Source: Fomes fomentarius (taxonomy: Eukaryota > Basidiomycota > Agaricomycetes > Polyporales > Polyporaceae). Taken from it: a stretch of DNA of 64,000 nt. Every line of letters begins with the position of its first letter. Within the stretch, counting starts at the first letter, position 1. This document shows, piece by piece, positions 27,239 to 56,138 of this stretch. Under the pieces are notes generated by a model. That model made no database searches and was not told the DNA's origin. It worked only from the letters and a program-made list of their open reading frames with translations. Both the position numbers and the translations under genes were made by a program. The stretch is from NCBI GenBank assembly GCA_022606135.1, contig JABYQN010000004.1, positions 2,170,001 to 2,234,000 on the forward strand, given 5' to 3'.

Positions 27239-27728
27239 TGTTAGCTGCAGTGTGCCTCAGAGCAATCCCAATGGCCTGTGTCAAGCTCTGTGAAGTCTTA
27301 TATGTTGCAGAAATAATACTACCCACCTGTGTCAAGCTCTGTGAAGTCTTAAGAGACACCAGAGCTCAACACAGCAACTGTCTACGAGGCAGGAGCCCGT
27401 GGGAAACAACTGTACAGTACTTCCTAACATAGGAATCCACAAAACATACAGAAGCGCTCAAAGAAAAACTCATGGAGGGCACAGGAGTCAATGCATGGCC
27501 TAGCGCTCTTAACCGAGGTGCGGGGCGCCCGTGGCGACCCTGTGTGAATATTTGCATAGCCACAGGTCGGATAGGGAAGGAGGGAAAATCGGCGAAGATA
27601 ATGCTGCAAAGGAGCACACTTGGACAGTGTGGAATAAAGAAAGGGAATTACCCATGAAAGAAGTGGGCAGCACCCCCAGAGACTATTCTGGGGGCTTGAC
27701 TAGGGCACAGGACCCATGAGGTCCAACA
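27239..27728 (+). mobile_element. Solo LTR of the copia family, with GACTA target duplication
   Basis: Related throughout most of its length to the 454-base LTRs of the copia element at 39,817-45,374. It starts TGTTAGCTGCAGTGTGCC and ends GAGGTCCAACA. A perfect 5-base duplication GACTA flanks it (27,234-27,238 and 27,729-27,733), showing insertion followed by LTR-LTR excision. It is the most diverged copy; several differences from the intact LTR are CG to CA or TG. Confidence 0.88.
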
Positions 27729-32152: not shown

Positions 32153-32273
32153 AGGCGCGGCAGGACGGGCGACAAGCGCACTCCAGTCGCTCGTCCATGC
32201 CCTCATCCATCACCACTGACTCCCCTCGCCTCGACCTCTCGTCTCTGCCCACTCACCCTCACTCTCGCTTCAC

Positions 32274-33631
32274 GTGCGTACGCACACTCCAGCGTGCACT
32301 ACCTTCACCCCACCTCACATTGTAAACCCCGTCGCGCTCACCTTCGCACCTGGTCCAGCACCTCCTCCCTGCCCAAACATGGACCCTCGATGCAACACTT
32401 TCGCATTACGACAGGGCGACACTACGCAAGTGTCATCTTCGCTCAATAAAGAGGCATGGGCATGCTATCTCGCAGACTATCCCAATCACATGTATGTAGA
32501 CTCGCTACTTCACATAATAGACTATGGCGCCGCCATAGGATTTGCCAGGTCTCAGTCTGAGCAAGCTTGCCAGAATCTCTCCACCGCACTCAAACACCCC
32601 GAGACCATTACCACCAACCTCGCTGCCCTCTGCTCGCAGCAATGTATGCACGGCCCCTTTTCATCCCCATCACTGCCCCAGTTCCGCACCTCCCCATTCA
32701 GAGTCGTCTCGCACCTGCACAATCCTGCAAAGCTGCAGGTTATTAACCATCTTTCCTGGCCCGACGGCTTTTCAGTCAATGACAGCATCCCAGATACAGA
32801 AGCCAGCATTGTTTATGAGGCATTTGATTCAGCCATCTCAGAGATTCGGCAGCTCGGTCGGGGCTGCCTCTTAGCCAAGCTTGACCTAAAAGATGCGTTC
32901 AGGCACATCCCCATCCACCCAGCTGATTGGAACTTGCTGGGCTGCACTTGGGGCGATCAGTTTTATTACAGCATCGTATTGGTCTTTGAAGTCTGCGCCC
33001 TACATTTTTGACCTCTTCGCAGAAGGTTTCCACTGGATTATCCAACGACATATTCCCGCCTCAATACGCCATTATCTCGACGATTTCTTGCCAATTTTTC
33101 CTCTGGCAACACCACTCTCCCTGGCGAACGCGGCCGTCAACTGGACGACAGCTCCGGGGGAGAACTCAGGTTCACTATCCAGGAGGCGAAGACAATCCGG
33201 CCCACTCAGGCTCTCAAATTCCTCGGTTTGGAACTCAACACAGAAGCTATGGAGGCATGCATGCCTCCCGACAAGATCCTCTGGCTGGGCGATCTGCTAG
33301 CGCGTTGGCGTCACCAATGCGTCTGCCGCCTGTGCGATCTTCAAGCGTTGATAGGGTTCCTGCAATTTGCCGCACAGGTCATCCCTCATGCTCACACGTT
33401 CATCCAGCGGCTGATTGAATTCTCAGCGACATTCTCATCAGACTTCACGTCCCGCCACATTCCTCGTTACACGCATGCAGATATCCAGTGGTGGTCTGTA
33501 TTCCATTCGCAGTGGAATGGCATCCACCTTATCGCACCCTCGCGGCCAACTATTCACATATACACAGACACGAGCGGTTCTGAGCATAAAGGGATAGGCG
33601 GGATCTTCGGCGACTTGTGGTATGCCAGTTG
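32274..33631 (+). pseudogene. Reverse transcriptase / RNase H of the DIRS-like element, frameshifted and truncated
   Basis: RT blocks in order: FRVVSHLHNPAKLQVINHLS, LAKLDLKDAFRHIPIHPADW (first catalytic Asp), LKSAPYIFDLFAEGFHWIIQ RHIPASIRHYLDDF (the YLDD catalytic box), then ALIGFLQFAAQVIPHAHTF. The RNase H start is IHIYTDTSGSEHKGIGG. The frame shifts at about 32,985 and again between about 33,130 and 33,230. The coding stops at IFGDLWYAS where the copia LTR begins. Expected downstream RNase H residues and the tyrosine recombinase are absent. The HPADW and YLDDF style is characteristic of fungal DIRS/Ngaro RTs. Confidence 0.78.
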
Positions 33632-34019
33632 TGTTGGACCTCATGGGTCTTGTGCCCTAGCCAAGTCCATGGTTTGTTTTCATTCAGTCTTTCGCACATT
33701 CCCTAATTCCTTCACTGCACCATTATCTTTGCCGATTTTTCCCTCCTTCCCTATTTGACCTGTGGCTGTGCAAATATTCACACAGGGTCGCGACGGGCGC
33801 CCCGCGCCTCGGTTAAGAGCGCTAGCCCGTGCATTGACTCCTGCGCCCTCCATGAATTTTTCTTTGAGCGCTTCTGTATGTTTTGTTGATTCCCATGTTT
33901 GGAAGTACTGTATAGTTGTTTCCCACGCGCTCCTGCTAGTATTATTTCTGCAATATATCAGACTTCACAGAGCTCAACATAGGCCATTGTGATTGCTCTG
34001 AGGCACACTGCAGTCAACA
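33632..34019 (-). mobile_element. Copia LTR with internal deletion
   Basis: Inverted relative to the LTRs of the main copia element. Starts TGTTGGACCTCATGGGTC and ends CTGCAGTCAACA. Only 388 bases long: about 66 bases are missing at about 33,930, between CTCCTG and TAGTATTATTTCTGC. Flanks are AGTTG and AATTG (4 of 5 match). It separates the DIRS-like pol on the left from a WD40 relic on the right. Confidence 0.85.
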
Positions 34020-34168
34020 AATTGCCCCTCGTTGGTACGCCAGATACAGACGTCACCATCCAGTGCCGCAGTTGTGATGTGTCAGCCATGGATACTGAAA
34101 GCGACTGCGGTGATGCCCTTGATGTGTCCGTTGGTAAGGGTGACCTTCGGTTTGTATCTGCACGCCAT
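34020..34168 (-). pseudogene. WD40-repeat fragment cut by the LTR
   Basis: On the minus strand a piece reads KVTLTNGHIKGITAVAFS, then a TGA (34,082-34,084), then HITTAALDGDVCIWRTNEGQ, up to the LTR edge. The GH...ITAVAFS...LDGDVCIW pattern is one WD40 blade. The TGA falls where DG-R is usual, so a CGA-to-TGA change is likely. No further blades are visible upstream, and the other side of the LTR is not WD40 sequence. Confidence 0.6.
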
Positions 34169-34984
34169 GGTTCACTTGGTGGATGGATGGGAGCAATTCA
34201 AGCAAGCCTACGAGTGGCGCAACCATCTGGTAGTGACATACACGTGTTTGTCACGCAGGGGCGGATTTCGGGCAGGTTTACCGGCCTTGCATCCCCAGGT
34301 CTTGTCAGCCATCAATGTATGCTAGGAACCGTGAAACCGTGAAGTATATCACCTTGTAGAGTGATACTCGAGGTACCTTCCATGATACACATGCATGTGC
34401 ATATGCATACCATAGTCCACTGGCACGGCGCACAGGTGCTGTCAGCCCGAGCTAAGTGAACTGTAACAAGACGATCGCGCATGTCCTGATATTACTTACT
34501 TGACAATGGCCGACCCCGAGCCCTGTTGTGTAAGCCTCGCTCGAGTTGCAGTCCTTCCGTTTGTAATGTCTCTGCTACCTTTCGCGCGACTGCGCTGAGC
34601 CATAATATAGAGCGTGGTGGTGTTATTCAAAAGACTTGCTTTTGGAGGCGCATTCTGTAAGCACAGATCAGAGTTGGGATGCAGATGGCTTGCGCCAGGT
34701 TTGGGCTTTGTGGCTTAGTAGCGGAGGGACCAGGGAAGGGACGGCGAGCTCGCTTGGGCGTTCGCTCTCTCCTGGTGCCGCGATTCCGGGTCCGACGCGG
34801 GCGGACCAACATTCCTAGATATGGACGGTGCGCCGCTTGAGCTTCTGTCCTCTTCCTTTGTCATGTTCAATCAGCTTTGTTCAATGGCCAGCTCCGCCTC
34901 TCAATTACCAGCTCTCTTCCAAACACACTCGCTGCCCCCTCAGCTCTCACGTCCATCCCGTACTCTCGAAATGCCCTTGTTCAC
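34169..34984. other. Non-coding stretch, no feature recognised
   Basis: About 815 bases between the WD40 relic and the first supported exon of the hypothetical gene. A short alternating purine-pyrimidine patch (CATGCATGTGCATATGCAT, about 34,389-34,408) is visible. I see no gene, tRNA or inverted repeat. Confidence 0.35.
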
Positions 34985-36190
34985 ATGGACTCCATCTCAC
35001 TGCACTCGTGAGTTTCAATGCATATGAGATACCTGTTCTCCTGCTAACAAGGACCTAGTTGGTTCGACCTACCCTACGTGGTGTTCTGCTCCAATGAAGC
35101 CACGTATTCCATCGTCGACTTACATTCGGGGCGGCAGGCGAGTGTGTCTGTTGTAGAGCTGGGACAGGAAGTCTGTGAGTGTTATATGCATGGACGATTG
35201 TGTCCTTATCCATTCGTCCAGCACCGCTCATGCACCAACTACCTCATCTCAGATGGCTTCATCATTTGCGATGTGCTTGAATGCGGTTTCGCTCCTACCC
35301 CCATCCGTGCTCAGCATGGGTTTGTGTTGGATGAGAACGTCTTGATGACTGCTAGTCAGAAGTCGTGGATGATCAGATTGACGGTGACACAGGTAGGCAA
35401 TCCTTTCGAACGTTTCTGGCAAGCCAAATTGTGACTGACACTACTTTCTCAGGCACCATCGTTGATCTATCTAAGGCATGTTCGATACGTTCACGACCTT
35501 TTGATCAACATCCATTTTGACAAGATGGCAGATTATCTAGCCTGTGTCAAGGCGGTCAACGAGGCCGCACTCACTTCGGACAACCGGTGGCAGGAGCACA
35601 TCCTGACCCTTCGCCGTGCGCTGCACACAGTTCCTCAGCACTCTCCTCCTGATCAGGAGGAGCGCGTATGTTCTATGCACCCTCATGCCCGCAGCATCGA
35701 TACTATTGCTGGGGGCAATGAAGGAGCCGCCAGTGACAACAACAACACCATCGCGCACACGCACCAGGGAGATGGTGACATAGTCGGCCAGGTGCAAGGC
35801 AACGGTGACGTGATAGACGGGTATCCCAGCGTCATAGCGGGTCAGGCACGCCGCGATGGTGTCCAGCAACAAGGAGACGAAGGCGGAGTGAGGGAGTCTC
35901 ACGTTACCCCACAGGAACGCGAAGACGACGCCGGCGCCGGTGCAGAGCAATGTGCCAGTGACACTGCTGATGCAGGCGAGGAAGGTACTTTTGCTTCTGG
36001 CGAGCAACAGGTCGCCCGCCGGCAGGATCACGGCGCCGTCATAGACAGGGGGGATGCAGACGCAGTCAGTGCGGAACAGGGCAGCGCTGTCATTGCAAAC
36101 GAGGTGCAGGGTGATCATGTTGCTGCTGGTGAGGAGCAAGATGTTCACGTCAGTGCCAGCAAGGTCGAGCGAGTACCAGAGCACTGGTGA
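34985..36190 (+). CDS. Unknown protein, Asp/Glu/Gly-rich C-terminal half
   Basis: Three exons can be joined without a stop. Exon 1 ends MDSISLHS at 35,007. Exon 2 (35,059-35,392) reads WFDLPYVVFCSNEATYSIVD LHSGRQASVSVVELG and has several Cys (CECYMHGRLCPYPF, HRSCTNYLISDGFIICDVLE). Exon 3 (35,453-36,190) starts APSLIYLRHVRYVHDLLINI and then becomes low-complexity, with repeated QGDGD, VQGNGD and GEEQ units. I do not recognise the family. It precedes a decayed membrane-protein gene on the same strand by about 150 bases. An upstream coding exon may exist (frame open to about 34,841). Codon pattern and clean splice sites support it moderately. Confidence 0.45.
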
Positions 36191-36336
36191 GGCTGGGATC
36201 AACTAGATAATGTCCTTTTCTTTTTGGCTCTTGATATCATGTACGTCTAGATCTGTAATAGTCAATGGGAGGCAAGCCTTCATTGCCAAGTCCTTTATTT
36301 CATGTTTGCAGATGTGTGGTGTTCGTGAGTACTACA

Positions 36337-37725
36337 ATGCCCAAACAACGTTCGTGGCCGACCTTCACCAGTTCTGTTCGATCCTGCGCCTTATCTTCCT
36401 ACATGACGGACATCCCACCTGCGATGGATCATACGAAGACTCAGGTATAGTAATCATACAACATGTTCAAACACTCACTTAAATCTATCGCAGCACCAGG
36501 AACACGAAGTTCCACTATGGCGTTAGTGGTGTGACTGCCTCTCGCCACTGCTCCTCGGAGTGCTCACTACTGTTTCGCGCACACTCTCCGTCATCTCCTC
36601 CTTGCTGGGCATCCTCAACACGGCGCTTTGGTTTATGCGGTATCCTCTGGGATGCCTCCTGTCTCTGGTATTCATTGGGGCGATCTGCATTGCCCTCACC
36701 AGCTCGGCCATTGACTTTGTTCAGGCTCGCGCTCACAGTCTTTGCACATTCCCTATCATCTCCCAACTACCATGCTGTGCCACGAATTCCTCCACCGCAG
36801 CGACGGCATACGGATACCTATCGCATCCCGATTTCCCTTCTCTGATGAGGATTCAAAATTTAGCACTGGACGAGCTCTCGGGACAGTCTAGGGTCGGCTC
36901 GAATATTGCGCTCAACCTCAAGCATGCGGAACTTGCTGTCAAGGATCTCATCGTGGTTGTTCAAGCTACCAACATGAGCATCAAGGACGCCCTTGTGGAC
37001 GATCTCTCTATGTTTGTCGCCGACTCACGTCAGGCTGCGCGCAGCCTGCAAGTGATCTCGGCGAAGATACTTGGATTTATGGACAGGTGAGTTTTAGCAT
37101 GATAATGTCCACATGCTCCTCGGACTGAGTACCATACGTATCCTGCCCCAGTATGATGGTGTACAGCCTCTACACTCACTGTGCGCTCGATGGTGTTTGT
37201 ATCTCGACAACGAACTCTCAAAGCTTAACTCCCTCTGTCACGCGAACATTCCTATCATCAGTTGCCGAGCTATCGATCCAGGTGTCCGATATTGTCACGG
37301 ACGTCACGAAGGCATCAGCGACCCTTGATTCGCTCGAGATGACCTTGTTGCACATCCACAGTCTTTGCATTCGAGAATCGCTAGCCATGACAACAGCACA
37401 CAATGACCTTCTGTGGAATATATGGGCAATGCTGGAAGGCTCCTACCAGAGACAGCTATGCGACATCCAATACCGGACCACCACCGTGAAAGATATTGAT
37501 CACTACCGCACTTTGGCCGCCGGTTATGTGGCTGTGAGTATGCAGACCTTGGTGATGATTGACGTTGAGCTGTCAGAGCTCCGCCACCGGATGGAACAGG
37601 GTCCCCTCTTTGGGCAGGAGCAGATACCAATGGAAGTGCAACTTGCTAGCATCGAGGTTACGTTGCGCCGCTTGAAGGAGGAGTTATCGGCGGGAAAAGC
37701 TGGCCTCCTTGGGAGGCAGGGCTAA
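36337..37725 (+). pseudogene. Basidiomycete membrane protein family, one premature stop
   Basis: Three exons. The first starts MPKQRSWPTFTSSVRS and includes YMTDIPPAMDHTKTQ; the second starts HQEHEVPLWR at 36,494. An in-frame TAG at 36,524-36,526 is followed without frame change by WCDCLSPLLLGVLTTVSRTL and a membrane segment LGCLLSLVFIGAICIALTSS. A helical region follows (about 36,840-37,085), then exon 3 with LDGVCISTTNSQSLT, LLWNIWAMLEGSYQRQLCDI, YRTLAAGYVAVSMQTLVMID VELSELRHRMEQGPL and IPMEVQLASIEVTLRRLKEE. From memory this layout (membrane segment, helical bundle, LLxxxW...LEG, ELxxLRxR, IPxEV) recurs in an uncharacterised Agaricomycete family. TAG from CAG is a single C-to-T change. Function unknown. 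Confidence 0.6.
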
Positions 37726-38496
37726 GTAGTGATTAGTACACACAGAGCAAATCGCAGTACTTAGGGACACCATACTTACTTAGTTCCGCGTGGTGCCTGT
37801 ACATGAGCGTTACTTTTGATCTTATCACTAGCTCCATCTTATCAGATCGCTTGGTGTAATCATTATCGGTCCAACATTATCAAATCGTGTGGCTACACCA
37901 ACTCGGACCGATTCTTGGGCGCCTGATGGGCCGACACAGCCACCCGAGTCGCATCTACATACCAGCTCATCTACGTCCATTTTCGACGCCACCATGAGCT
38001 GTTGATCACCGTGCGTCAGTCACTTACAGGTACTTCGCCTTGTACACAATGCTCGAGCGCGCTGAGCTGCAGTTACGTCTGTCAAGGTGACATGCTCTTC
38101 CGTGACCAGGGTAAGTAGCAGACAAACATGCTCGCATTGCAGACATGCGCTACAGCACAATCGTACGCCTGCATATTGATCAATGAGGGGGGGTTGCGAA
38201 GGGATACTAGGCTCATGCAGCTGCCCTGTTGCACATCCTCTCAACTGTCGCACATGAGGGGCAACCGTGCCAGTGGTCGTGATGCGGCACTCGCTACCCT
38301 CTGCTGCAAAGCCAGGCTCTTCCTCGGACCGTATGGTATGTAGTTGCTCAGCAATCCAGCAATAAGGTTTTTAGGTAATAACAACATGTTTACTACTTGA
38401 AGCGGCTCGTCCAGACCACAGACACACTCACTGCTTTCCCCTGTTCCCCCATCCCCACCTGCATCCCAAGGTCGTAGGAAATACTATATCACTGTC
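37726..38496. other. Intergenic stretch, no gene supported
   Basis: About 770 bases. A short plus-strand coding-like piece (YFALYTMLERAELQLRLS, about 38,035-38,090) is followed by a possible splice donor but has no extension I can support. Otherwise nothing is visible. Confidence 0.35.
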
Positions 38497-39696
38497 ATGG
38501 ACCCTTCTCTTTCTCCCTCCACCACTGTTGGTTCTGCTGGGTATTGCTGGGGAGATGGTCGCAGTCCCCCAGGTGGCACATACTATAGCACGATCACCGA
38601 CGAGGAGTTCATTAGGACAATGAAGGAGGTCATCACTCCCAACGTTATTGAAGATGCTCTATGGTGAGCCTCCTTGAATATTCCACCCGATATCAGTCTT
38701 GTATCGGTTGCTGGCCACAGGTTCCCATGGTCGTCGACCGCTGTCACGCCGTCAGACGGCACACGTCCATTGACTTGGCCCTATTCTGTTACAACCCACT
38801 ACAACAATGCTGGTGAACCCATAGCACCGAACTATACCATGTTCCCTGGTGGGTCCTGCCTTTCGCACTCCTACTATGCTCCCAGCCTTGGCACTGGTCT
38901 GCACGGCTCCCACCAGCCACTCCCGGATTGGTATGGGGCTGCACCGTCAAATTTCCCTATCCAAGGACCTTATAACATGGGCGCGCCCACCTATGAGCAA
39001 TCCTCCGCGCCTATTATAGCAAAATCCCCTCCACTTGACCATGCTACTCACTCGCAGGTCACTCTTAATGTCGCTTCCACTGCTCCCTGTCCCCTGGGCG
39101 CTACTGATCAGAAGCAGAAATACAAGCCAGAAGAAACCTTTCCAAAGACCAGGGCATCCTGGACATGACGTGCCCACATGCATCTTCCGACAATGGCGGA
39201 GATGTGGAAAGGTCTACACTTCCCCGAGTCCATACACAGGAAGCGCGCCATGGTCTACAAACACGAGAAACACGAGCTCATTGACGACCCAACGCTTGAC
39301 CCGCTCGACCTCCCGCTCCAGCGCGACGTGGAGGGGGTGTATTGGTGCTTGCTGGACACGTGCGACTACAAGGGTGAGTGGGCTCACAGCTAGATGGAGA
39401 GCAAGATAGAACTGACCCGTGTTCTGGCGGTTGATCGCTGCATAGGAAGCAACAAGAGGGAACATGTGAAGGAGCATGTCTGGGGTAGGCACCTCGACTA
39501 TCGTCCTCACAAGTGTCCCTACATGTGCCCTGAGGGGTTCACACGTGAGAGAGACCTTTGAAACCATTTCATGTCCTATCACACGGAACTGGGTTCTGCT
39601 CGTAATCGCAGGAAGTCTCAGTCAGTGGGCAATCGCAATGGCGCATTCAAGGACGGGCAAGACTCAGACTGCGACAACACCCCCAACCTGGAGTAG
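38497..39696 (+). pseudogene. C2H2 zinc-finger protein with two in-frame TGA stops
   Basis: Exon 1 (38,497-38,663) starts MDPSLSPSTTVGSAG and contains YYSTITDEEFIRTMKEVITP. Exon 2 (from 38,721) is Pro/Ser/Tyr-rich, resembling a fungal transcription-factor N-terminus. In the same frame a TGA (39,166-39,168) interrupts it before MAEMWKGLHFPESIHRKRAM and GVYWCLLDTCDYK. After an intron, exon 3 has KREHVKEHVWGRHLDYRPHK, then CPYMCPEGFTRERDL-stop-NHFMSYH with TGA at 39,559-39,561 inside the finger, and a polar tail to TAG at 39,694-39,696. Restoring Arg at both stops would give an ordinary C2H2 finger, so both look like CGA-to-TGA. A recoded or alternative-splice explanation is less likely. Confidence 0.65.
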
Positions 39697-39816
39697 ATGT
39701 CTCCTTTGGGTCGGTGAGTAAGCTGTGGTTGTACCTTCAGTGCTTCCTGACGGATGATTCTGTCGTTACAGGCCTTTACTGGCTGCGTGCACCACTGCTG
39801 TATCACCTCTCAAGTC

Positions 39817-40270
39817 TGTTGACTGCAGTGTGCCTCAGAGCAATCACAATGGCCTATGTCGAGCTCTGTGAAGTCTGATATATTGCAGAAATAATACTAC
39901 CCACCTATGTCGAGCTCTGTGAAGCCTGAGAGACACCAGAGCTCGACACAGCAACTGTCTACGGCGCAGGAGCACGTGGGAAACAACTGTACAGTACTTC
40001 CAAACATGGGAATCAACAAAACATACAGAAGCGCTCAAAGAAAAATTCATGGAGGGCGCAGGAGTCAATGCACGGGCTAGCGCTTTTAACCGAGGCGCGG
40101 GGCGCCCGTCGCGACCCTGTGTGAATATTTGCACAGCCACAGGTCAAATAGGGAAGGAGGGAAAAATCGGCAAAGATAATGGTGCAGTGAAGGAATTAGG
40201 GAATGTGCGAAAGACTGAATGAAAACAAACCATGGACTTGGCTAGGGCACAAGACCCATGAGGTCCAACA
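39817..40270 (-). repeat. 3' LTR of the copia element
   Basis: 454 bases, TGTTG...CAACA ends. Left flank AAGTC. Differs from the 5' LTR mainly near 40,085-40,215, several differences being C/T or G/A. Confidence 0.92.
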
Positions 40271-40281
40271 CTCCCCCCTGA
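40271..40281 (-). other. Polypurine tract of the copia element
   Basis: Minus strand CAGGGGGGAG immediately before the 3' LTR (plus strand CTCCCCCCTG). This is where the plus-strand DNA primer would form. Confidence 0.75.
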
Positions 40282-40285
40282 CCAG

Positions 40286-43200
40286 TCAAGTCCCCAGCCC
40301 AAGCATCTTCACCATCTCCAGCACCTTGGGCTTAGGCAGTGACTTGGTGAGGATATCCGCCGGCATGTCCAAAGTGCGGAGGTGCTCAATCTCAATCCGC
40401 CCTTTGGCTACTTCGTCCCGCAGCCAGTAAAAGCGCAGATCAAGGTGCTTCATGCGCCCATGGTGCTCAGGATTTTTTGCAACAGAGAGGGCGGAGAGGT
40501 TGTCGATGCGGAGCTTGGATGCAGAGGAGACATCGAAACCAAACTCCGTGAGCAGGTTGCGAAGCCAAAGCATTTCCTGGCCGGCGGAGACTGCTGCGAC
40601 GAATTCTGCTTCTGTGGTGGACAGCGCGACAATTGTCTGCAGACGACTCGACCAGGAGATCGCACCAGTGCCCATCTTGATCACATAGCCAGAGGTGGAG
40701 CGACCAGTGTCAGGACAGCCAGCATGGTCCGCATCGGTGAAGGAAGTGAAGAGCTCAGCATCGGGCGAAGGGGAGTAGGTGAGCTTGTAGTCAAGAGTGC
40801 CCTTGATGTAGCGGAAGAGGTGCTTGACGGCCTTCCAGTGCATCATCTCGGGATTCTGGGAGAAACGCGCAAGGTTGCCCACAGTGCGAGAAGCCGTAGC
40901 ATTCGAGGATGTTGAGGGCGTACTGGCGCTGTGAGACGGACAGGGAACGCGTCGAGCGGTCGCGCTCAATCTTGACACCCAGGAGCCAGGATGTAGGACC
41001 AAGGTCTTGCAATTTGAAGTGCGTGCGGAGGTCGTCCTTGACATGCTGGATGGCCGCCTTGGACTTGCCAGCAATGGTGATGTCGTCGACAAAGACAGGG
41101 ATGATAAGACGCACTCTGTTGCGCAGATAGACCCAGACACTGTGCTCGCAGACCAGGCGCAAAAATCCGAGCTTGAGCAGGACCTCATGCAGCTTCTCAT
41201 GCCAGCAGCGGCCAGCGTGCTTGAGGCCATAGAGAGCCTTGCGGAGGCACTACACCCACTGCGGAGTCTTCTCCTCAAAGCCCTCGGGCTGCTGCATGTA
41301 CACCTCCTCCTTGAGCTCACCGTTGAGATAGGCAGAGGAGATGTCCACAGACTCGAGTTCGAGGTCTTCGAGTGCAGCAAGAGCGAGGATAGTGCGGATG
41401 GAGGCCCACTTGGGTGTAGGAGCAAAGGTCTCGTTGTAGTCGAAGCCAGGGCGCTGGGAGAAGCCCTTTGCGACAAGACGGCCCTTGTACCGCTCAATGG
41501 AGCCGTCTGCATTGCGCTTGACACGGAACACCCAGCGTGAGCCAATGGCTTTGCGACCGGGCGGAAGCTGCACAAGCTCAAAGGTGCCGTTCTCGACAAG
41601 GGACTGGATCTCATCCTGCGCGGCCTTGAGCCACTTGTCACGCTCGTCTGGCGGAAGCCTCATCGCATCAGAGACAGAGCGCAGCTCGCCGTGCTGCTCT
41701 TGCGCTGCCTTGAGCGCATGCTCAACTACAGACTCGAATGTGACCTCCAGTGCATTGTCGTATGACAGGAAGTCGTCGCGCTCACCAGTGTAGACATGCT
41801 CAATGCCCGCAAGCATTGCCTCGACAGTGCACTCCAGTCCGTCCTCGTGATCGCGTCCGAGGAGGTCAAGCTCACTGTCCGAGGATGTTGGAGACGGCGG
41901 AGGTGAAGGAGAGCGGTATGTGCGGAACTGGACTGGGATTGGGTCGACTGGTGTGTCAATGAGTGGGTCTGGTGAGGGCGAGTTGCGCTGTGGAGTGTCG
42001 TCGTGCTCAGAGGGCTCTGGAGTGGGAGCAGGTGACGGAGTGTGGATGCGGAGGCGCTGCAGAACATGGTTCTCTCGCTCGAGCTGCTGGTTGTTCAGTG
42101 AGCCTGTGTAGCGAGTGGAGCGTGCTGGGAGCTTGCGTGCGAGCGCAGGATATGGCCTGAAGCCACCATGACCGTCCGCTTCATGGTGGGCGGACGGTGC
42201 ACCCGAGCGAGATGCTGGGCGAGGTGGAGGTGCAGCGCGCGGTGCAGGAGGCGCAGGAGGTGCTGGAGGACTCGGACTGCGTGGTGGTGCATCCGGGGAT
42301 GGTGCGCGCGGCTCTGGAGGTGCAGGCGGAGCGTTTTGCAGTGCAGGTGGTGCAGGCGGTGCAGGATCATCTGGATCATCTCCCCCCTGATCGTGCAGCT
42401 CTGGCACATCCTCAGTGTCGTCGGGCACATCGTCCGCATGCTCTCCGTCGCTGGGAATGTCTACTTCGTCCAGAGGCAGCCCAAAGACATTGATAGAGGG
42501 CGAGTTTCCGGGGAAGCAGTGCTCATCGAACACAGCATGCGAGGAGATGAGGAATTTCTTCGCAGCTGGATAGCTGACGAAAATGCATTTGCGCGTGTGA
42601 GGCTGCAGCGCTTTGCGGTCCTTCTTGCGCACAAGCACATAAGCCAGGCAGCCAAAGACGTGGAAGTAGGACACATCTGGTTTGCGTCCGTCGCGTTTCC
42701 AGGCAGTGTAAGGGATGCCGCCGCCCAGCGCAGAGGTAGGCATGCGGTTGCGAGTGTGGACAAAGGTGGAGACGGCGTGACCCCAGAACGACAGAGGCAG
42801 CTTGGCCTAAGAGAGAAGAGCTGTTGCGCCCTCAGCAATAGTGCAGTTTGCTTGCTCCGCAACACCATTTTGGTGCAGCTCGTCTGGCTCTGTGTGCTGG
42901 CGATGGATGCTGTGCTCAGTGCAGAAGTCGGCGTACTCCTGGCCAATGTACTCGCCGCCCTTGTCGTCGCGCATGGCCTTGATTCGCAGGCCGAGGCAGT
43001 TCTCAGCATATGCTTTGAATGCCTTGAACGCAGCAAACGCGTCGCTCTTGCGCTTCAGGAATGCGATGGCCCAGAAACGCGTCGCATCGCACACAAAAAT
43101 CATCCAGTACAGATGACCTTCGGGCGTAGCAACCGGGAGCTTGCCCTTGAGGTCGGTGTGGACCAGCGCGATGGGAACGAGCTTCCTGGACGCGAAACGA

Positions 43201-44696
43201 GGGATGGAGTGACGGTTGAGCTTTCCAGCAAGACACGGCTCGCAGACAGTGTCCGGAGCGCGTTTTGAGCGAATGGTGAGACCACGGACAAGGCCCTTGC
43301 GCACAACAGCGTGCAGGTCGTCGAGGTTGGTGTGGGAGCAGCGCTGATGCCACAGCGACAAGTCCTCCTCGCTGGCGGTCGACACAGCGAGTGCACTGTG
43401 CGACTGGGACACAGTACGGCCAAGGAGATAGCCCACATTGTGCCGGTCGACTTGTGCTTCGAAGCGCAGCTGTCCCTGCTGGCGGAACAGCGCACGCGCA
43501 GCCTGGATCTCGACGACATAGCCCTTCTCGCGCGTGAGATGGAAAACGGACAGTAGATTGCTGGCGAGCGCAGGAACATGCAAGACATCGTGTAGTACAA
43601 CAGCAGGTGGTACAACCCCGTCCCTCTCCGCTGGTTGGAACACCACAGACCCTAGCCCAGCCGAGTAGACGATGTGCGAGTTGGCGAGGCGAATGGGGAT
43701 GACGTGCGGCGAGTAGGAGCGAAACCAGTGATGGTGGGGAGTCATGTGTGCAGAAGCACCTGTGTCGGTGTTCCAGTTAGTCGCAGCCGGAGTAGCGAGC
43801 CAAGCAGAGCGGTCGGAGACAGAGAGGAGGGCGGAAGCGCAACCAGCACTCACAGCAGCTGACCCAGCAGACTCCGGGGGAGTGTCCTGCGTGTCCTTGG
43901 ACGCCTCAGCCGTGTTCTCCTTGCGCTTGGGCTTCTGGGAGCAGAACTGCAAACACTGAGCCGCTTTCTCCTTGGCCCGAGTGCTCGCATCGCGCTTGGA
44001 GAAGCACTGGTCCTCGGAGTGGCCGGTGCGACCACAGAACGCGCAGACAAGGGTGGATGCGGCATGGGAGAGCGCAGGCGTCGACGGGGACACCCCAGGC
44101 TGGTTCTCGAGCGCAATGAATGCATCCTGCGGCTTCTCCAAGGTCAAGGAGTCGTCGAGGAGCAGCGTCTGGCGCAGCGAGTTGAACTCAGCCGGCAGTG
44201 CACGGATGAGCGTCATGAGGACAAGCTCGTTGTCTAGCTGGTCGAGATCGAAGCCCGCAGGACGCAGGGCACGCATCTCAGACTTGAGCTGTGAAGCACG
44301 GGTGGAGAGAGTGGATAGGGACTCATCTTCGGCCTTTTGGAGGCTGAGCAGCGCATCATAGGTGTTAAAACGCGTACCGGGACGTTTCTGCATGTGTATG
44401 GCCTCCAACTTTGTCCACATCGCACTGGGATCGCTGCGGATGGGCTCCAGATGCGTGTGCTGCTCCCTCTCCACACAACCCCATAACTCCCCAGCTGCCA
44501 TGTCCACCTTGTTGTCGAAATCACGCATTTCACGGCGCTCACCTGAGTCCCATGGCTGCGTGAAGATGGGCCTGGTCTCAGTGCCCTCGACAATGCGAAG
44601 AGCACCAAGAGTGCGGAGCCGAGCCTCCATGTCCAGCCTCCATTGCTGGTAGTTGCGATTGTTGAGCTTTGGGAAGGAGGGCGCGGATGGAGCCAT
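40286..44696 (-). pseudogene. Copia gag-pol polyprotein, two stops and an RT deletion
   Basis: Starts MAPSAPSFPKLNNRNYQQWR at 44,696. Gag carries a CCHC knuckle CAFCGRTGHSEDQC; the protease box is NTDTGASAHM. Integrase shows HQRCSHTN and CEPCLAGK for zinc, then HTDLKGK, MRDDKGGEY and HQNGVAEQ for the catalytic acids. RT has ETFAPTPKWASIRTILALAA and FVDDITIAGKS. RNase H has FTDADHAGCPDTGRSTSG and STTEAEFVAA, ending VLEMVKMLGLGT. In-frame TAGs lie at about 42,807 (just before AKLPLSFWGHAV) and at about 41,250 (just before CLRKALYGLKHAG). At about 40,895 a frame change coincides with absence of the usual ~50 residues between LECYGFS and TVGNLARFSQNP. All other domains are recognisable. Confidence 0.9.
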
Positions 44697-44903
44697 GGTG
44701 ATAGGGGAAGTGCACGGCGCATGACGAGTGGGCGAAATTGTGAAGGGATTGGGCGAGAAACCCGCGAGGAGCGATGGAATTGATGGGGGAAACACCCAGA
44801 GAGATGAAAACAAGTCAAGCAGAGCAAGCAGGGAAGACTGGGGACCAGGATGAGGTCTTGAGAGCGATGGACTGGCGGAGATGGATGTCTGGAGGCAGTC
44901 AGA

Positions 44904-44920
44904 GCGCAGGGCTCATAACC
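44904..44920 (-). other. Primer-binding site: half-tRNA initiator Met
   Basis: The plus strand reads GCGCAGGGCTCATAACC directly against the 5' LTR (starts 44,921). This is the anticodon-arm sequence of eukaryotic initiator tRNA-Met (anticodon CAT inside). Its complement on the element strand would therefore prime from a tRNA cut in the anticodon loop, as in Drosophila copia and yeast Ty5. Confidence 0.85.
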
Positions 44921-45374
44921 TGTTGACTGCAGTGTGCCTCAGAGCAATCACAATGGCCTATGTCGAGCTCTGTGAAGTCTGATATATTGCAGAAATAATA
45001 CTACCCACCTATGTCGAGCTCTGTGAAGCCTGAGAGACACCAGAGCTCGACACAGCAACTGTCTACGGCGCAGGAGCACGTGGGAAACAACTGTACAGTA
45101 CTTCCAAACATGGGAATCAACAAAACATACAGAAGCGCTCAAAGAAAAATTCATGGAGGGCGCAGGAGTCAATGCACGGGCTAGCGCTCTTAACCGGGGT
45201 GCGGGGCGCCCGTCGCGACCCTGTGTGAATATTTGCACATCCACAGGTCGAATAGGGAAGGAGGGAAAAATCGGCAAAGATAATGGTGCAGTGAAGGAAT
45301 TAGGGAATGTGTGGAGGGCTGAATGAAAACAAACCATGGACTTGGCTAGGGCACAAGACCCATGAGGTCCAACA
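44921..45374 (-). repeat. 5' LTR of the copia element
   Basis: 454 bases, TGTTG...CAACA. Right flank GGTTG, which is the reverse complement of the CAACC found to the right of the LTR at 46,666-47,119. Confidence 0.92.
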
Positions 45375-46665
45375 GGTTGGGCATGAGGACGTGATCATAA
45401 ATCGACTGTAGACCTCTGATATATACGCCATCATGTTCTTGTCAAAGAGCACAATACGGTCCGGGGAGGTCAAGCGACGCGTTGCAAGGTCTGCAGTGAC
45501 AACTAGGTGTACGAAATTCTCGAGGACGACCTGTTCTTCTTCTGATGCCCCAGTACGCCCCTACACTCGCACGAGGGTCATGGCCAGATAGATCATCGAG
45601 AGCGTCCGCCATTGATCTGCCTTCAATTTACCATGACTGGATTCGCCGAAGTTTGAGGGCGGTTTCTCAACCCAAGTAGGTACAATCAGTCAGCAATATC
45701 CTGGCGCACTTTCAGTAAGACCTCGCCGGTGAAGAGCATGTACTTTGCAACACGGTCTTCCTCAGGGTTTGGAAGTTGATAGTGCGATGTGGGCGCTGGG
45801 AGAGCTTCCGGAATGCAAACGAATGAAGCGATATCCGTCAGTGGTTCGCTCTGCTGAACATTTCTGTCAGCTGTGGTAAGATCCCAAGACGACAGCCAAG
45901 CATACCCAAGTGAGCAGAAGCTCTGCGAGTTGCACCTTCACAGCCTTGGTCTTCCGTTCCACCACACTGTTTAACTCTGCAACGGCCACAAGGTAATCTT
46001 GCCGTATCGCGGTCAGAGCACTGAGGGACCTGAGCTCAAGCGCGCAAAGAACACGAGCAAGCTGTGTCTTCTGCTGCTCAGGTGTGTGCATCCTGGCATT
46101 GCCGGATTTGACACTGATGTCGCGGATCCCCCATAGGTTTACAAAGTGATGACGAAGCTTGCCCAGAAACAGGTTGTGCATTGTATCGAGGAGCACGAAC
46201 TTCGTTGGGTCCCAGTACTCCAGACAAAGGAGTTCGGACCAGCGCAGACCGTGGGTGTCGAATATCTTGGTCCTCTCGGCCTCGGAGCTCGCATCTCACC
46301 ACTGCCTAGCCAGTCACAAGTGCTCCCCCCAGCTATGACGTCTCGGCCATTGTGACCGATCAGGGTTCGAGATGTCCTTGAGCATGAGCATGCAGAAGGA
46401 GCATAGGTGGTGGGATTGGTAACCTGAGAACCCAGCGACCTTGTGGATGGCTGGAAGGTTGCAGACGAGAGGTATTACTGCCACATGCACTAGACGTCCG
46501 ACATCTCGATTTGCTGTACGTGCGTAGTTGACGCCAGTGTGCCAGAATTCTACAAGCTCGTCGACAAGAGGATGTAAGAAATGGTAGAGTTGATCGACAC
46601 TGGGCTCGTGGGGCCTGGGAATAATTCCAGCGAGATAGATGTATTCGGGGCGGAAGCGCAGGTGG
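45375..46665 (-). pseudogene. Tnp2-like transposase, middle segment, inverted
   Basis: On the minus strand from 46,665: HLRFRPEYIYLAGIIPRPHE, DQLYHFLHPLVDELVEFWHT, RLVHVAVIPLVCNLPAIHKV AGFSGYQSHHLCSFC, then RWSELLCLEYWDPTKFVLLD TMHNLFLGKLRHHFVNLWGI and, nearer 45,400-45,660, ESSHGKLKADQWRTLSM. These are core blocks of the Tnp2-like/CACTA transposases of Agaricomycetes (a zinc-binding CNLPA...CSFC and the D-x-MH-NLFLG catalytic region). TGA stops at 46,314-46,316 and 46,296-46,298 replace probable Arg codons, and a TAG lies near 45,575. The segment is bounded exactly by two inverted LTRs. The N-terminal third is missing. Its C-terminal continuation is on the opposite strand at 47,120. Confidence 0.85.
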
Positions 46666-47119
46666 TGTTGGACCTCATGGGTCTTGTGCCCTAGCCAAGT
46701 CCATGGTTTGTTTTCATTCAGCCTTCCACACATTCCCTAATTCCTTCACTGCACCATTATCTTCGCCGATTTTTCCCTCCTTCCCTATTTGACCTGTGGC
46801 TGTGCAAATATTCACACAGGGTCGCGACGGGCGCCCCGCACCCCGGTTAAGAGCGCTAGCCCGTGCATTGACTCCTGCGCCCTCCATGAATTTTTCTTTG
46901 AGCGCTTCTGTATGTTTTGTTGATTCCCATGTTTGGAAGTACTGTACAGTTGTTTCCCACGTGCTCCTGCGCCGTAGACAGTTGCTGTGTCGAGCTCTGG
47001 TGTCTCTCAGGCTTCACAGAGCTCGACATAGGTGGGTAGTATTATTTCTGCAATATATCAGGCTTCACAGAGCTCGACATAGGCCATTGTGATTGCTCTG
47101 AGGCACACTGCAGTCAACA
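46666..47119 (-). mobile_element. Inverted 454-base copia LTR (solo)
   Basis: Same element-sense LTR, TGTTGGACC...CTGCAGTCAACA read on the plus strand, thus opposite to the neighbouring copia LTRs. Left flank GGTGG, right flank CAACC; no duplication in the present arrangement. Full 454-base length and very similar to the other two LTRs, so it is young. Confidence 0.9.
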
Positions 47120-48030
47120 CAACCACCACCTCTGTTTGCATCTGATGGAGTGCTTGCTCGCTTTCGGACCAGTCCACGGCTGGTGGTCTTTCCCATTTAA
47201 ATGGATAAATGGGCTGCTTCAACGTCTCAACACCAACTACAAGCCAGGTTAGTAGAATTGATCCTCGGTCATGCTCTCCTCCTGATCACCTTGATTGACA
47301 GGTGAGATGCCGATAACTTACATGAAGTATTTCTACCTGGGGGTCAACCTGCGATGGTTGGTGACGGAGATCGACTGGCCAGATGTGCAAGTTTTCCACG
47401 ACTGGGTGGACGCATTCAAGGCCGCATTCAAGGATGCCACTCGCGGCATTCGTTTCACCGAAATCTCTGCCTATCTCACGGCTGCTGCAGCATACACTTA
47501 TAACGAACGTCAACAGACTCCCTAGCCCGACAGACATACGACAACCTCTTCTCACTCATCATATCCACAGGTCCAGTGCCATCGTTCATTCCAGTCTACA
47601 CCCCTCATAATCCAGACCATCTTCCCCGTCTGTCGGAGCAGGCACACTTTGTGGGTAGTTCCGGATTCCACGGTATCGGTGGGGCAGATCAAAAGTGTAT
47701 TTCATCATCGACGAATGGAGAGCAAGCGGATGATTGTGGAGCTGTTCGTGGTCATCAACGAGTACGCGTCCTTGTCTAGTGAAGACCAGCCGCATGACCC
47801 GTTCCACCATTTCCCCGAGCTTCAGACACGACTCTACTACAACATGTTTCATCCTCAAACTTGGCTGGTGTGACTCTCTGACATCGTCGCTCATGCAGTG
47901 ACCTTGCCTTACACGCCGAAAGATATTGTGCAACCCTGCATTATTGTGAAGTCGCTGGACAGGGTGTGTTCCATCTGCAACGGTCGTATCAACATATGCT
48001 GACCTGAATCTTGACAGAGTTGATGGGTAA
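47120..48030 (+). pseudogene. Tnp2-like transposase, C-terminal segment
   Basis: Plus strand, directly after the LTR: NHHLCLHLMECLLAFGPVHG WWSFPFKWINGLLQRLNTNY KP, a short intron (47,249-47,301), then GEMPITYMKYFYLGVNLRW, later SFIPVYTPHNPDHLP, and after a further junction FVVINEYASLSSEDQPHDPF and YYNMFHPQTWLV. The end is TLPYTPKDIVQPCIIVKSLD R, finishing at TAA 48,028-48,030. The GPVHGWWxFPF...NTNxKPGE block normally follows the HGKLKADQW block now found reversed at 45.4-45.7 kb. Strong family match, gene broken by LTR insertion and inversion. Confidence 0.85.
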
Positions 48031-54099: not shown

Positions 54100-56138
54100 T
54101 ACTTCCTTGCTATGTTCCCAGAAGCCGCCAACTTTGCACATGGTTGGATGGTCGCAGCATACGACAACAAGTGCAACACGGAGGTGACGACCTTTTGGGA
54201 TCGTATGAGTGAAGACTCGACTCTCGGGTGTTCAAGTAAGATACGACTGACCCTGCGGAGAACATTTCGTCTGCATGATGACGCCTTCATCGTACAATGC
54301 GATGAAATCGTCCACAAGATTCTTCATGAAAGTGCTGCAACTGCTCCGATGAGAACTCTTTTGGACCTGAGGTGATACCGTAGATCAGGAGATTCCGAGG
54401 CTGGTACTTGAGGTGCATCGGGAGGTTTGCGATGGATAGTGACACGGCACCTGAACTATGAGAGCTCAAGCCATGGCTGTTGGAGTACACAAACCTACCA
54501 TGTACTTCAGTCTAGTATATTATGCAGTAGATGGGGTGATACATACCCATCGAACCCAAGAGTGACGCCGATGCGTACGTAGTTCATCTGCGTTCTTACG
54601 TGTTGGACTGTTGTCAAAGGTCAAAGAAGGTCGATCCATCTGGACCAGGAAGCGTCGCCCAGATCTCGCCGTCTTACCTGGTGTTTGCTTGCGTGATCGC
54701 CAAGAGTCACAGATCTGCTCGTTCAAACCTTGGGAGAGGAATCGAATAAGAGCATCACATATAGGACGCCGAGGGGCTTGAAGCTCCATCTCATACGCAG
54801 ACTTCGTGTTTCTTTGGTGAACCCGATCACCTGGCACCGGGGATTCAGTGGAAGTTGTATTAGGAAGGCTATCAGAATATGAAGAGGCGATTCGCAAGAG
54901 ATTGATCCCACAGTAGTCACAGCTACAGTCGTGCGGCGACTCCGCGGGATAGATGGCTCGACAGCTTAGGCAGAGTGGGTGAATGTCGAAGTCGTCTTCG
55001 AGCCCCAGACGGCGGTACGTAGTCTTGAGCGTGACAGGAACCTTGATGTCGTCAGCGAACACATGTAGCCCAACAATGACAAGGCGAAGAGCGCAGAGGA
55101 AAAATGGCAGGCAGCGTGTGGAACACTGTACCTCAGAGCAAGTCATGAGGTGAGCAACTAGTACGTCGAAGCGTTCTCGTACTGATCAACCAAATCCACT
55201 CCTAAGAGCCTCGATGCATCACCTGTTCCGAGGACATACATAAACACAGGTCAGAAGTCACAAGTGGAGCCCAGAAGCGTACTAGAGGCGATGTAGACTC
55301 TTTCGTCCTGTTCAAGTCCTAGATCTTCGGCACCTTGAGGCAAGTCTGATATCAAGCCAAGTAAGCTAGCATATAACAGAGAATGTTGAACAAGCATACC
55401 TTGTGTGTCAGAAATCAACTCCCCGCTGTGCTCAGAATGCCCTAGCAACTCCTCGGGCGATGGTGACCTGGATTTACTAAGAGCATCGGTCAGAACTTCA
55501 AAGACTCCGATGTACTAGACCGAGCCTGGACACATACTTGACAATCTTGGGACGAGGATATCGATACTCATACCATGGTCACTAGCAGATGACATTGTCT
55601 GATGCCTGGCGCGAATGCGTCTCCTGAGCCAAGCTACTACTACACAAACTCACTTCAAAGTGTTCATCTGCTAGTGGTCATATGAGCGGTAGTGACGACA
55701 ATACAGTTTTGACGGTGAACAGCTAGAGGGAGTGCACTTACGGAGGGTTGGGGCCACTCCATGAGAGATTATGCCAGAAGAACCCTGCTCGGCCAGGGAG
55801 GGTGCTATCGAAGTGTCAGGAAAGTCAAGTAGTGAGACAACTATGAGTCGACCACACCTTGCTTCTCCTTCTCGAGAACCGCGCTGAGCACGGGGGCCTT
55901 GTATTGGTGAGTGATAAGGGTCTGTTGCACCTTGCTCATGCACTCCGAGTCGTTCTTGTTGCAGCATGTCGGTCACGTTGAGGATGATGTTGCCATTGGG
56001 CCCGTACTCCTTGATGCATATGTGTGTACAAAGGCATTGTACGCGTTGTTGACGATCTGCACGCTGTGCCAGTGTCAGAGTCTCATAGTCAGCGCGCATA
56101 AGCAGGGAGTTCCATACCGCTTTCGGTCCTCTCGCCAT
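54100..56138 (-). pseudogene. Second Tnp2-like transposase, N-terminal two-thirds
   Basis: From 56,138: MARGPKAVWNSLLMRADYET and CLCTHICIKEYGPNGNI, an N-terminal Cys-rich start. Poorly resolved exons follow (about 55,250-55,950), then VPVTLKTTYRRLGLEDDFDI, CLSCRAIYPAESPHDCSCDY CG, FLSQGLNEQICDSWRSRKQT, then SSGAVSLSIANLPMHLKYQP RNLLIYG and, past stops near 54,235-54,250, HLRVALVVVCCDHPTMCKVG GFWEHSKEVGCLRC. These are the zinc ribbon, the SWRSR region and the CNLP/CGF...C-x-x-C block of the family. It overlaps in domain content with the copy at 45-48 kb, so it is a different element. The catalytic MHNLFLG region and the C-terminus are missing. Confidence 0.72.

What the first reader, a model, noticed from the sequence alone, without database searches (positions are those of the whole stretch)
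44921..47170. LTR-LTR inversion split a transposase, and both breakpoints are readable
Seen: the 1,291-base segment 45,375-46,665 lies between two inverted 454-base LTRs. It encodes the middle of a Tnp2-like transposase on the minus strand, while the C-terminus is on the plus strand beyond the second LTR. The left LTR is flanked by GGTTG and the far side of the right LTR by CAACC, its reverse complement. Inverting the segment on paper gives CAACC|LTR|CAACC, a proper 5-base duplication. It also brings HGKLKADQW, then VLMPNHHLCLHL and FGPVHGWW, into family order (one base of frame slip remains). So an LTR inserted into the transposase gene, then recombined with the neighbouring copia LTR.
Basis: partly seen in the sequence, partly recalled or inferred. 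Interest (0 to 1): 0.85.

Follow-up and report, generated by a model that had tools for sequence, protein, structure and literature searches.

The report
Retrotransposon repeats flipped a transposase fragment
In what is probably a bracket fungus, a copia retrotransposon sits in a broken DNA-transposon gene, and a crossover between its end repeats and related ones turned part of that gene around; this is a clearly readable case of a known kind of rearrangement.

Summary
Two 454-base LTRs (A 44921-45374, B 46666-47119) are inverted and 99% identical. The 1,291 bases between them encode the middle of a Tnp2-like (PF02992) transposase on the minus strand; its C-terminal part is on the plus strand beyond B. 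In 8 of 10 chosen relatives the two halves are collinear on one protein; so are 7 of 8 own-genome loci, three of them near-identical. Joining the segment's end to the sequence after B with one CAACC kept reads unbroken across MPN|HHLCLHL.

A and B are each other's closest among 63 LTR copies and alone share matching 5-base flanks, so they look like the two LTRs of one full-length copia. LTR C (39817-40270) groups with LTR D, and its flank AAGTC does not match CCACC. A crossover of C with B, inverting about 6.4 kb (40271-46665), fits slightly better; A with B remains possible.

The transposase lacks about its N-terminal third and carries a stop and a frame slip. Mismatched flanks are common in this family (8 of 13 elements listed), so such exchange is ordinary here. 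Misassembly could not be checked against reads.

The parts
39812..39816 (+). AAGTC, outer flank of LTR C; no matching flank at A or B
39817..40270 (+). LTR C (3' LTR position of the copia; probable crossover partner of B). 9 differences to A, 8 to B, 4 of 388 to LTR D
40271..44920 (-). Copia body: gag, Pol_BBD, gag-pre-integrase, integrase, SH3-like, RVT_2 in copia order; in-frame TAG codons at 42807-42809 and 41250-41252; the frames toward 40.3 kb are also disrupted (by eye)
44921..45374 (+). LTR A (5' LTR of the copia), followed by GGTTG
45375..45379 (+). GGTTG, reverse complement of CAACC: one copy of the 5-base target duplication
45375..46665 (-). Inverted middle of the Tnp2-like transposase (about residues 350-783 of relative P0046), with an in-frame stop and a frame slip near 45,399-45,423
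46661..46665 (+). GGTGG (CCACC in transposase sense), upstream cut end of the transposase; no exact partner among the head flanks read
46666..47119 (-). LTR B, 5 differences to A
47120..47124 (+). CAACC, second copy of the target duplication
47120..48020 (+). C-terminal part of the transposase in family order (matching stretches starting about 47121, 47295, 47682 and 47880)
33632..34019 (-). LTR D, solo, internally deleted; flanks AGTTG/AATTG match at 4 of 5; closest relative of C

Best explanation
A full-length copia element (LTRs A and B) inserted in sense orientation into a Tnp2-like transposase gene and duplicated CAACC. Another LTR of the same family (precursor of C), in the opposite orientation, sat at the upstream cut end of that gene fragment, where its flanks AAGTC and CCACC mark a further exchange or deletion that removed the N-terminal part. 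Homologous recombination between that LTR and the copia's 3' LTR (B), most simply within the last 56 bases of the LTR, inverted everything between them, about 40271-46665: copia body, LTR A and transposase middle. This leaves the transposase middle on the minus strand between A and B. Shown: the inverted arrangement relative to the family, the exact 5-base match between A's and B's flanks, the unbroken frame at the joint, the closeness of A to B and of C to D. Inferred: the crossover partners, the order of events, the loss of the N-terminus. Whether the stop and frame slip came before or after the inversion is unknown.
For: Inverted repeat; flanks GGTTG at A and GGTTG at B read in LTR orientation, AAGTC at C, CCACC at B; frame unbroken at the joint with one CAACC; relatives collinear; A and B mutually closest of 63 LTR copies, sharing 277G with one other copy and 280T with five others; tree AB 94/88 and CD 93/88; single-crossover fit 5 discordant sites for C x B against 7 for A x B; among 13 two-LTR elements listed, the 3 with matching flanks have 0, 2 and 0 LTR differences, while the 8 with mismatched flanks have 3 to 17, C-A being one of the 8 with 9.
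Against: The site counts alone are weak: 6 of 11 variable sites join A with B, P 0.12 against equal thirds. The two tree pairings fall just short of the tool's starred level and the bootstrap had not settled. A and B differ at 5 sites, more than the 0-2 of the other matched elements. The crossover must fall in the last 56 of 454 bases. Neighbouring LTRs tend to group by contig, so local gene conversion could make A and B look like sisters. The AAGTC/CCACC mismatch needs a further event under this model too. No reads across the joints were available.
Confidence: 0.6

Rival explanations
1. One reading: a copia element (C-A) lay beside or in the transposase, a separate lone LTR (B) inserted at CAACC, and A x B recombination inverted only 45375-46665; C was altered by another exchange.
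For: Same duplication and same unbroken frame; smallest inverted segment; flank mismatch is common in this family, 8 of 13 two-LTR elements listed.
Against: Copia C-A then has mismatched flanks AAGTC/CCACC and non-sister LTRs; at least 7 discordant sites for any single crossover; needs gene conversion or a further exchange at C, and a separate step that makes B a lone LTR.
Confidence: 0.28
2. Assembly error: the orientation between the LTRs was set wrongly; the real chromosome has the transposase upright.
For: Near-identical 454-base repeats are typical places for misassembly (general knowledge); clusters on C3 and C5 show perfect or near-perfect inverted or tandem duplications in this assembly.
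Against: 24 contigs for 40.9 Mb, one of 4.9 Mb, suggest long reads, for which a 454-base repeat is short (inference); A and B differ at 5 sites, so they can be told apart; an upright arrangement would still need the LTR insertion with CAACC duplication.
Confidence: 0.08
3. Two separate broken transposase copies lie on opposite strands, each joined to an LTR by chance, with no inversion.
For: L026 is a distant family locus with opposite-strand fragments, on a contig (C14) where no LTR of this family was found.
Against: The two halves here join exactly at one residue with a shared 5-base flank, and alignments to relatives run through the joint; in DNA searches of the genome the segment matched only itself and one 66% relative, and the C-terminal stretch only itself.
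Confidence: 0.03

Closest known systems
Inversions by ectopic (non-allelic homologous) recombination between inverted LTR-retrotransposon copies, as for yeast Ty
   Same: Inverted near-identical LTRs bound the turned segment. PMC3757047 (passages seen) says recombination between repeats can give inversions and that closely juxtaposed inverted Ty elements can create fragile sites.
   Different: Here the event is fossil and lies in a transposase fragment; no rate, allele or strain comparison is available.
GlCEN427, the centromeric Copia element of Ganoderma leucocontextum (PMC10817607; passages and section 3.3 read)
   Same: Copia with an LTR of a few hundred bases, solo and paired LTRs, clustered on chromosomes; the paper reports matches in other Polyporales.
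   Different: LTR here is 454 bases against about 427; sequence relationship and centromere position were not tested; LTRs within 3 mismatches were found on 12 of 24 contigs only, and C1, C7 and C10 have more than one cluster.
REANNOTATE's reasoning on inter-element LTR recombination (PMC2672092; passages seen)
   [quoted passage not shown] C and A do not.
   Different: The passages leave better detection of inversion events to future work; here the inversion was read from flanks plus protein order.

Membership tests
Ty1/copia LTR retrotransposon | gag, integrase before reverse transcriptase, RVT_2-type RT | tested here: met
   Retrotran_gag_2, Pol_BBD, gag_pre-integrs, rve, SH3_retrovirus, RVT_2 in that order; the piece 40289-41659 gave no family in the frame given
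Ty1/copia LTR retrotransposon | LTRs TG...CA with 5-base target duplication | tested here: met
   TGTTG...CAACA; 14 exact 5-base flank matches against 1.6 expected, though most two-LTR elements listed lack one
Tnp2-like (Transposase_21, PF02992) transposase | PF02992 match above curated cut-off | tested here: met
   35 bits against 28.6, 46317-46664 minus
Tnp2-like (Transposase_21, PF02992) transposase | complete open coding sequence | tested here: not met
   N-terminal part not found, in-frame stop and frame slip, split on two strands
LTR-mediated inversion | inverted homologous LTRs at both ends of the turned segment | tested here: met
   true for A/B and for C/B
LTR-mediated inversion | target duplication split so that each copy sits at a different LTR in inverted orientation | tested here: met
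   GGTTG at A, CAACC at B
LTR-mediated inversion | uninverted allele in a relative | not testable with these tools
   the search tool says this genome has no relatives held
GlCEN427 centromeric Copia | LTR sequence homologous to GlCEN427 | not tested
   no GlCEN427 sequence in the text read
GlCEN427 centromeric Copia | present in, and confined to, the centromere of every chromosome | tested here: inconclusive
   clusters on 12 of 24 contigs, more than one cluster on C1, C7 and C10; no chromatin or Hi-C data, and whether contigs equal chromosomes is unknown

The most novel reading that the evidence does not exclude
This copia family marks centromere-like clusters in which LTR-LTR exchange is the main rebuilding process: two-LTR elements there are mostly chimeras, and inversions such as this one and the near-perfect palindrome on contig C3 are successive products of it. 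The window then catches one readable step of fungal centromere remodelling. (Lowered from 0.25 in my draft after counting that only 12 of 24 contigs carry the LTR within 3 mismatches.)
Probability: 0.2. Interest if true: 0.5.

Novelty: new member of a known kind. Interest (0 to 1): 0.28.

Why it matters
It is a worked example in which target duplication, LTR relationships and the protein order of the interrupted gene are all readable, and in which they lean against the simplest choice of partner LTRs. It warns that LTR pairs in this family should not be dated by LTR divergence without checking flanks: 8 of 13 two-LTR elements listed have mismatched outer flanks. Nothing in it changes a known mechanism.

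Tried and rejected
Orphan N-terminus: searched the genome with the N-terminal part of relative L024 (11 matches, 10 candidates, all scored) and with P0046, a relative from another record (31 matches, 38 candidates, all scored), and the window locally. I saw no unpaired N-terminal piece ending at the cut beside an LTR. C5:1133461 looked promising but proved to be another collinear copy with an internal deletion; C18:404395 is a decayed copy whose match continues past the cut.

D/C inversion of 34020-39816: rejected by reasoning, because D's own flanks match at 4 of 5 and swapping them makes the match worse.

Copia bodies: differences of the window's body to seven others along its length showed no switch that would separate the models.

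Literature: searches returned no paper, and one that was not opened. Searches gave lists; from these I read passages of PMC2672092, PMC10085805 and PMC3757047 and passages plus section 3.3 of PMC10817607; the other listed papers were seen as listings only. PMC10085805 added only an example of a centromeric inversion that may have occurred through 5S rRNA genes. No search was aimed at whether this very locus is in print. The use of mismatched target duplications plus LTR phylogeny to detect rearrangements by human endogenous retroviruses is recalled, not read.

Full report
What is there. The window is C4:2170001-2234000 of a 40.9-Mb, 24-contig genome. The transposase's named relatives in the list are mostly Trametes and Ganoderma, so the host is probably a polypore (inference). 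Two 454-base sequences, A 44921-45374 (+) and B 46666-47119 (-), are 99% identical inverted repeats with 1,291 bases between them. They start TGTTG and end CAACA and differ at 5 sites. A third copy, C, at 39817-40270 (+) bounds a copia body (40271-44920, coding minus) together with A. A deleted fourth, D, lies at 33632-34019 (-), and an old fifth at 27239-27728 (+). The body carries gag, integrase, SH3-like and RVT_2 domains in copia order and two in-frame TAG codons.

The transposase. The 46317-46664 piece (minus) matches PF02992, tnp2. Of the eight own-genome loci compared, seven (L020, L021, L022, L023, L024, L025, L027) carry the matching pieces on one strand in family order. L020, L021 and L022 are near-identical, so these are fewer than seven independent cases. 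L057, fetched later, is collinear too. The eighth, L026, a distant broken copy, has opposite-strand fragments; no LTR of this family was found on its contig C14. In the window the middle is minus and the C-terminus plus. Of ten proteins that I chose from the 120 listed, eight hold both halves in order (P0003, P0010, P0013, P0039, P0046, P0049, P0065, P0088), while P0014 and P0061 match the middle only; P0013 lacks the exon at the joint. So the present arrangement is an inversion relative to the family.

The joint. A is followed by GGTTG, and B is followed by CAACC, its reverse complement. Joining the reversed segment end to the sequence after B with a single CAACC gives YDHVLMPNHHLCLHLMECLLAFGPVHGW in one frame; with two copies the frame breaks. 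Alignments to relatives run through the joint. The N-terminal part is not in the window, and I found no orphan piece in the genome.

Which LTRs recombined. They are AAGTC and CCACC. For a C x B crossover, turning back 40271-46665 gives a copia in sense orientation with CAACC on both sides, A and B as its two LTRs, and C as a lone LTR between AAGTC and CCACC (joints printed). Both models leave that one mismatch. The LTR sequences lean to the second. A and B are mutually closest among 63 copies of 380 bases or more and share 277G, found in only 3 of 63; C shares 394A only with D. The tree pairs A with B (94/88) and C with D (93/88), just under the tool's starred level, with a bootstrap that had not settled. 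The best single crossover leaves 5 discordant sites for C x B (position 398-454) and 7 for A x B. The margin is small, the raw site count is not significant (P 0.12), and local gene conversion could imitate it, since LTRs tend to group by contig.

How usual this is. Genome-wide there are 81 LTR heads and 76 tails within 3 mismatches, on 12 of 24 contigs. Distinct outer heads and tails gave 14 exact 5-mer matches against 1.6 expected: eight LTRs matching themselves (one of them sitting in another LTR), three two-LTR elements, this pair, and two cross-locus matches, which is about what chance gives. Of 13 two-LTR elements listed, 3 have matching flanks, 1 matches at 4 of 5, 1 is tandem, and 8 mismatch (two of these are copies of one another). 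Elements on C5, one on C10 and those on unread stretches are not in that list. Flank mismatch, and by inference LTR exchange between elements, is therefore common here, and the window's event is one instance.

Known background. PMC3757047 says in the passages seen that recombination between repeats can give inversions. A Copia LTR family found only in predicted centromeres is described for Ganoderma leucocontextum (PMC10817607, passages and section 3.3). The clusters here look alike, but C1, C7 and C10 have more than one and half of the contigs have none; neither sequence relation nor centromere position was tested.

Verdict. Observation confirmed; interpretation partly supported, with a somewhat better-fitting partner LTR and a larger inverted segment. 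It is a new member of a known kind of rearrangement and of modest interest. Assembly error is not excluded without reads.

Noticed in passing
L047, L048, L049 (C3:1256200-1278300): Palindrome of about 21 kb centred near C3:1267282 with copia LTR sequence at its centre: inverted stretches of 995 and 1537 bases at 100%, and 580 bases at 99.7% around the centre; the stretches between were not all read. Real structure or assembly artefact not decided.
   Followed up: partly
L054, L056 (C5:1100800-1106800 and 1117800-1123800): Tandem copies with a spacing of about 17 kb, 99.98% identical over 6000 bases.
   Followed up: partly
L003, L004 (C6:485511-493798): Two copia 5' LTRs with adjoining body in inverted orientation, 99.6% identical over 1955 bases; another inverted LTR pair at C6:478109/481792 shares the same 12-base outer flank.
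   Followed up: no
L027, C10:949104-950390: Another Tnp2-like gene begins at the head of an LTR of the same copia family, about 26 codons upstream of the position of the window's cut.
   Followed up: no
L026 (C14:771000-779000): Distant Tnp2-like copy with middle fragment on + and C-terminal fragments on -; no LTR of this family found on C14.
   Followed up: partly
window 54326-55185 (-): Second, diverged Tnp2-like fragment: a match at 54326-54490 and an N-terminal-looking ORF at 54520-55185 (by eye).
   Followed up: no
whole genome, C4:2.13-2.22 Mb (window) included: LTRs of this copia family lie in one to three clusters on each of 12 of 24 contigs, resembling the centromeric Copia of another polypore.
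   Followed up: partly
window 32220-33758 (+): Remnant of a further retroelement (reverse transcriptase and RNase H-like frames, by eye) ends at LTR D; Pfam gave no family for 33012-33755.
   Followed up: no
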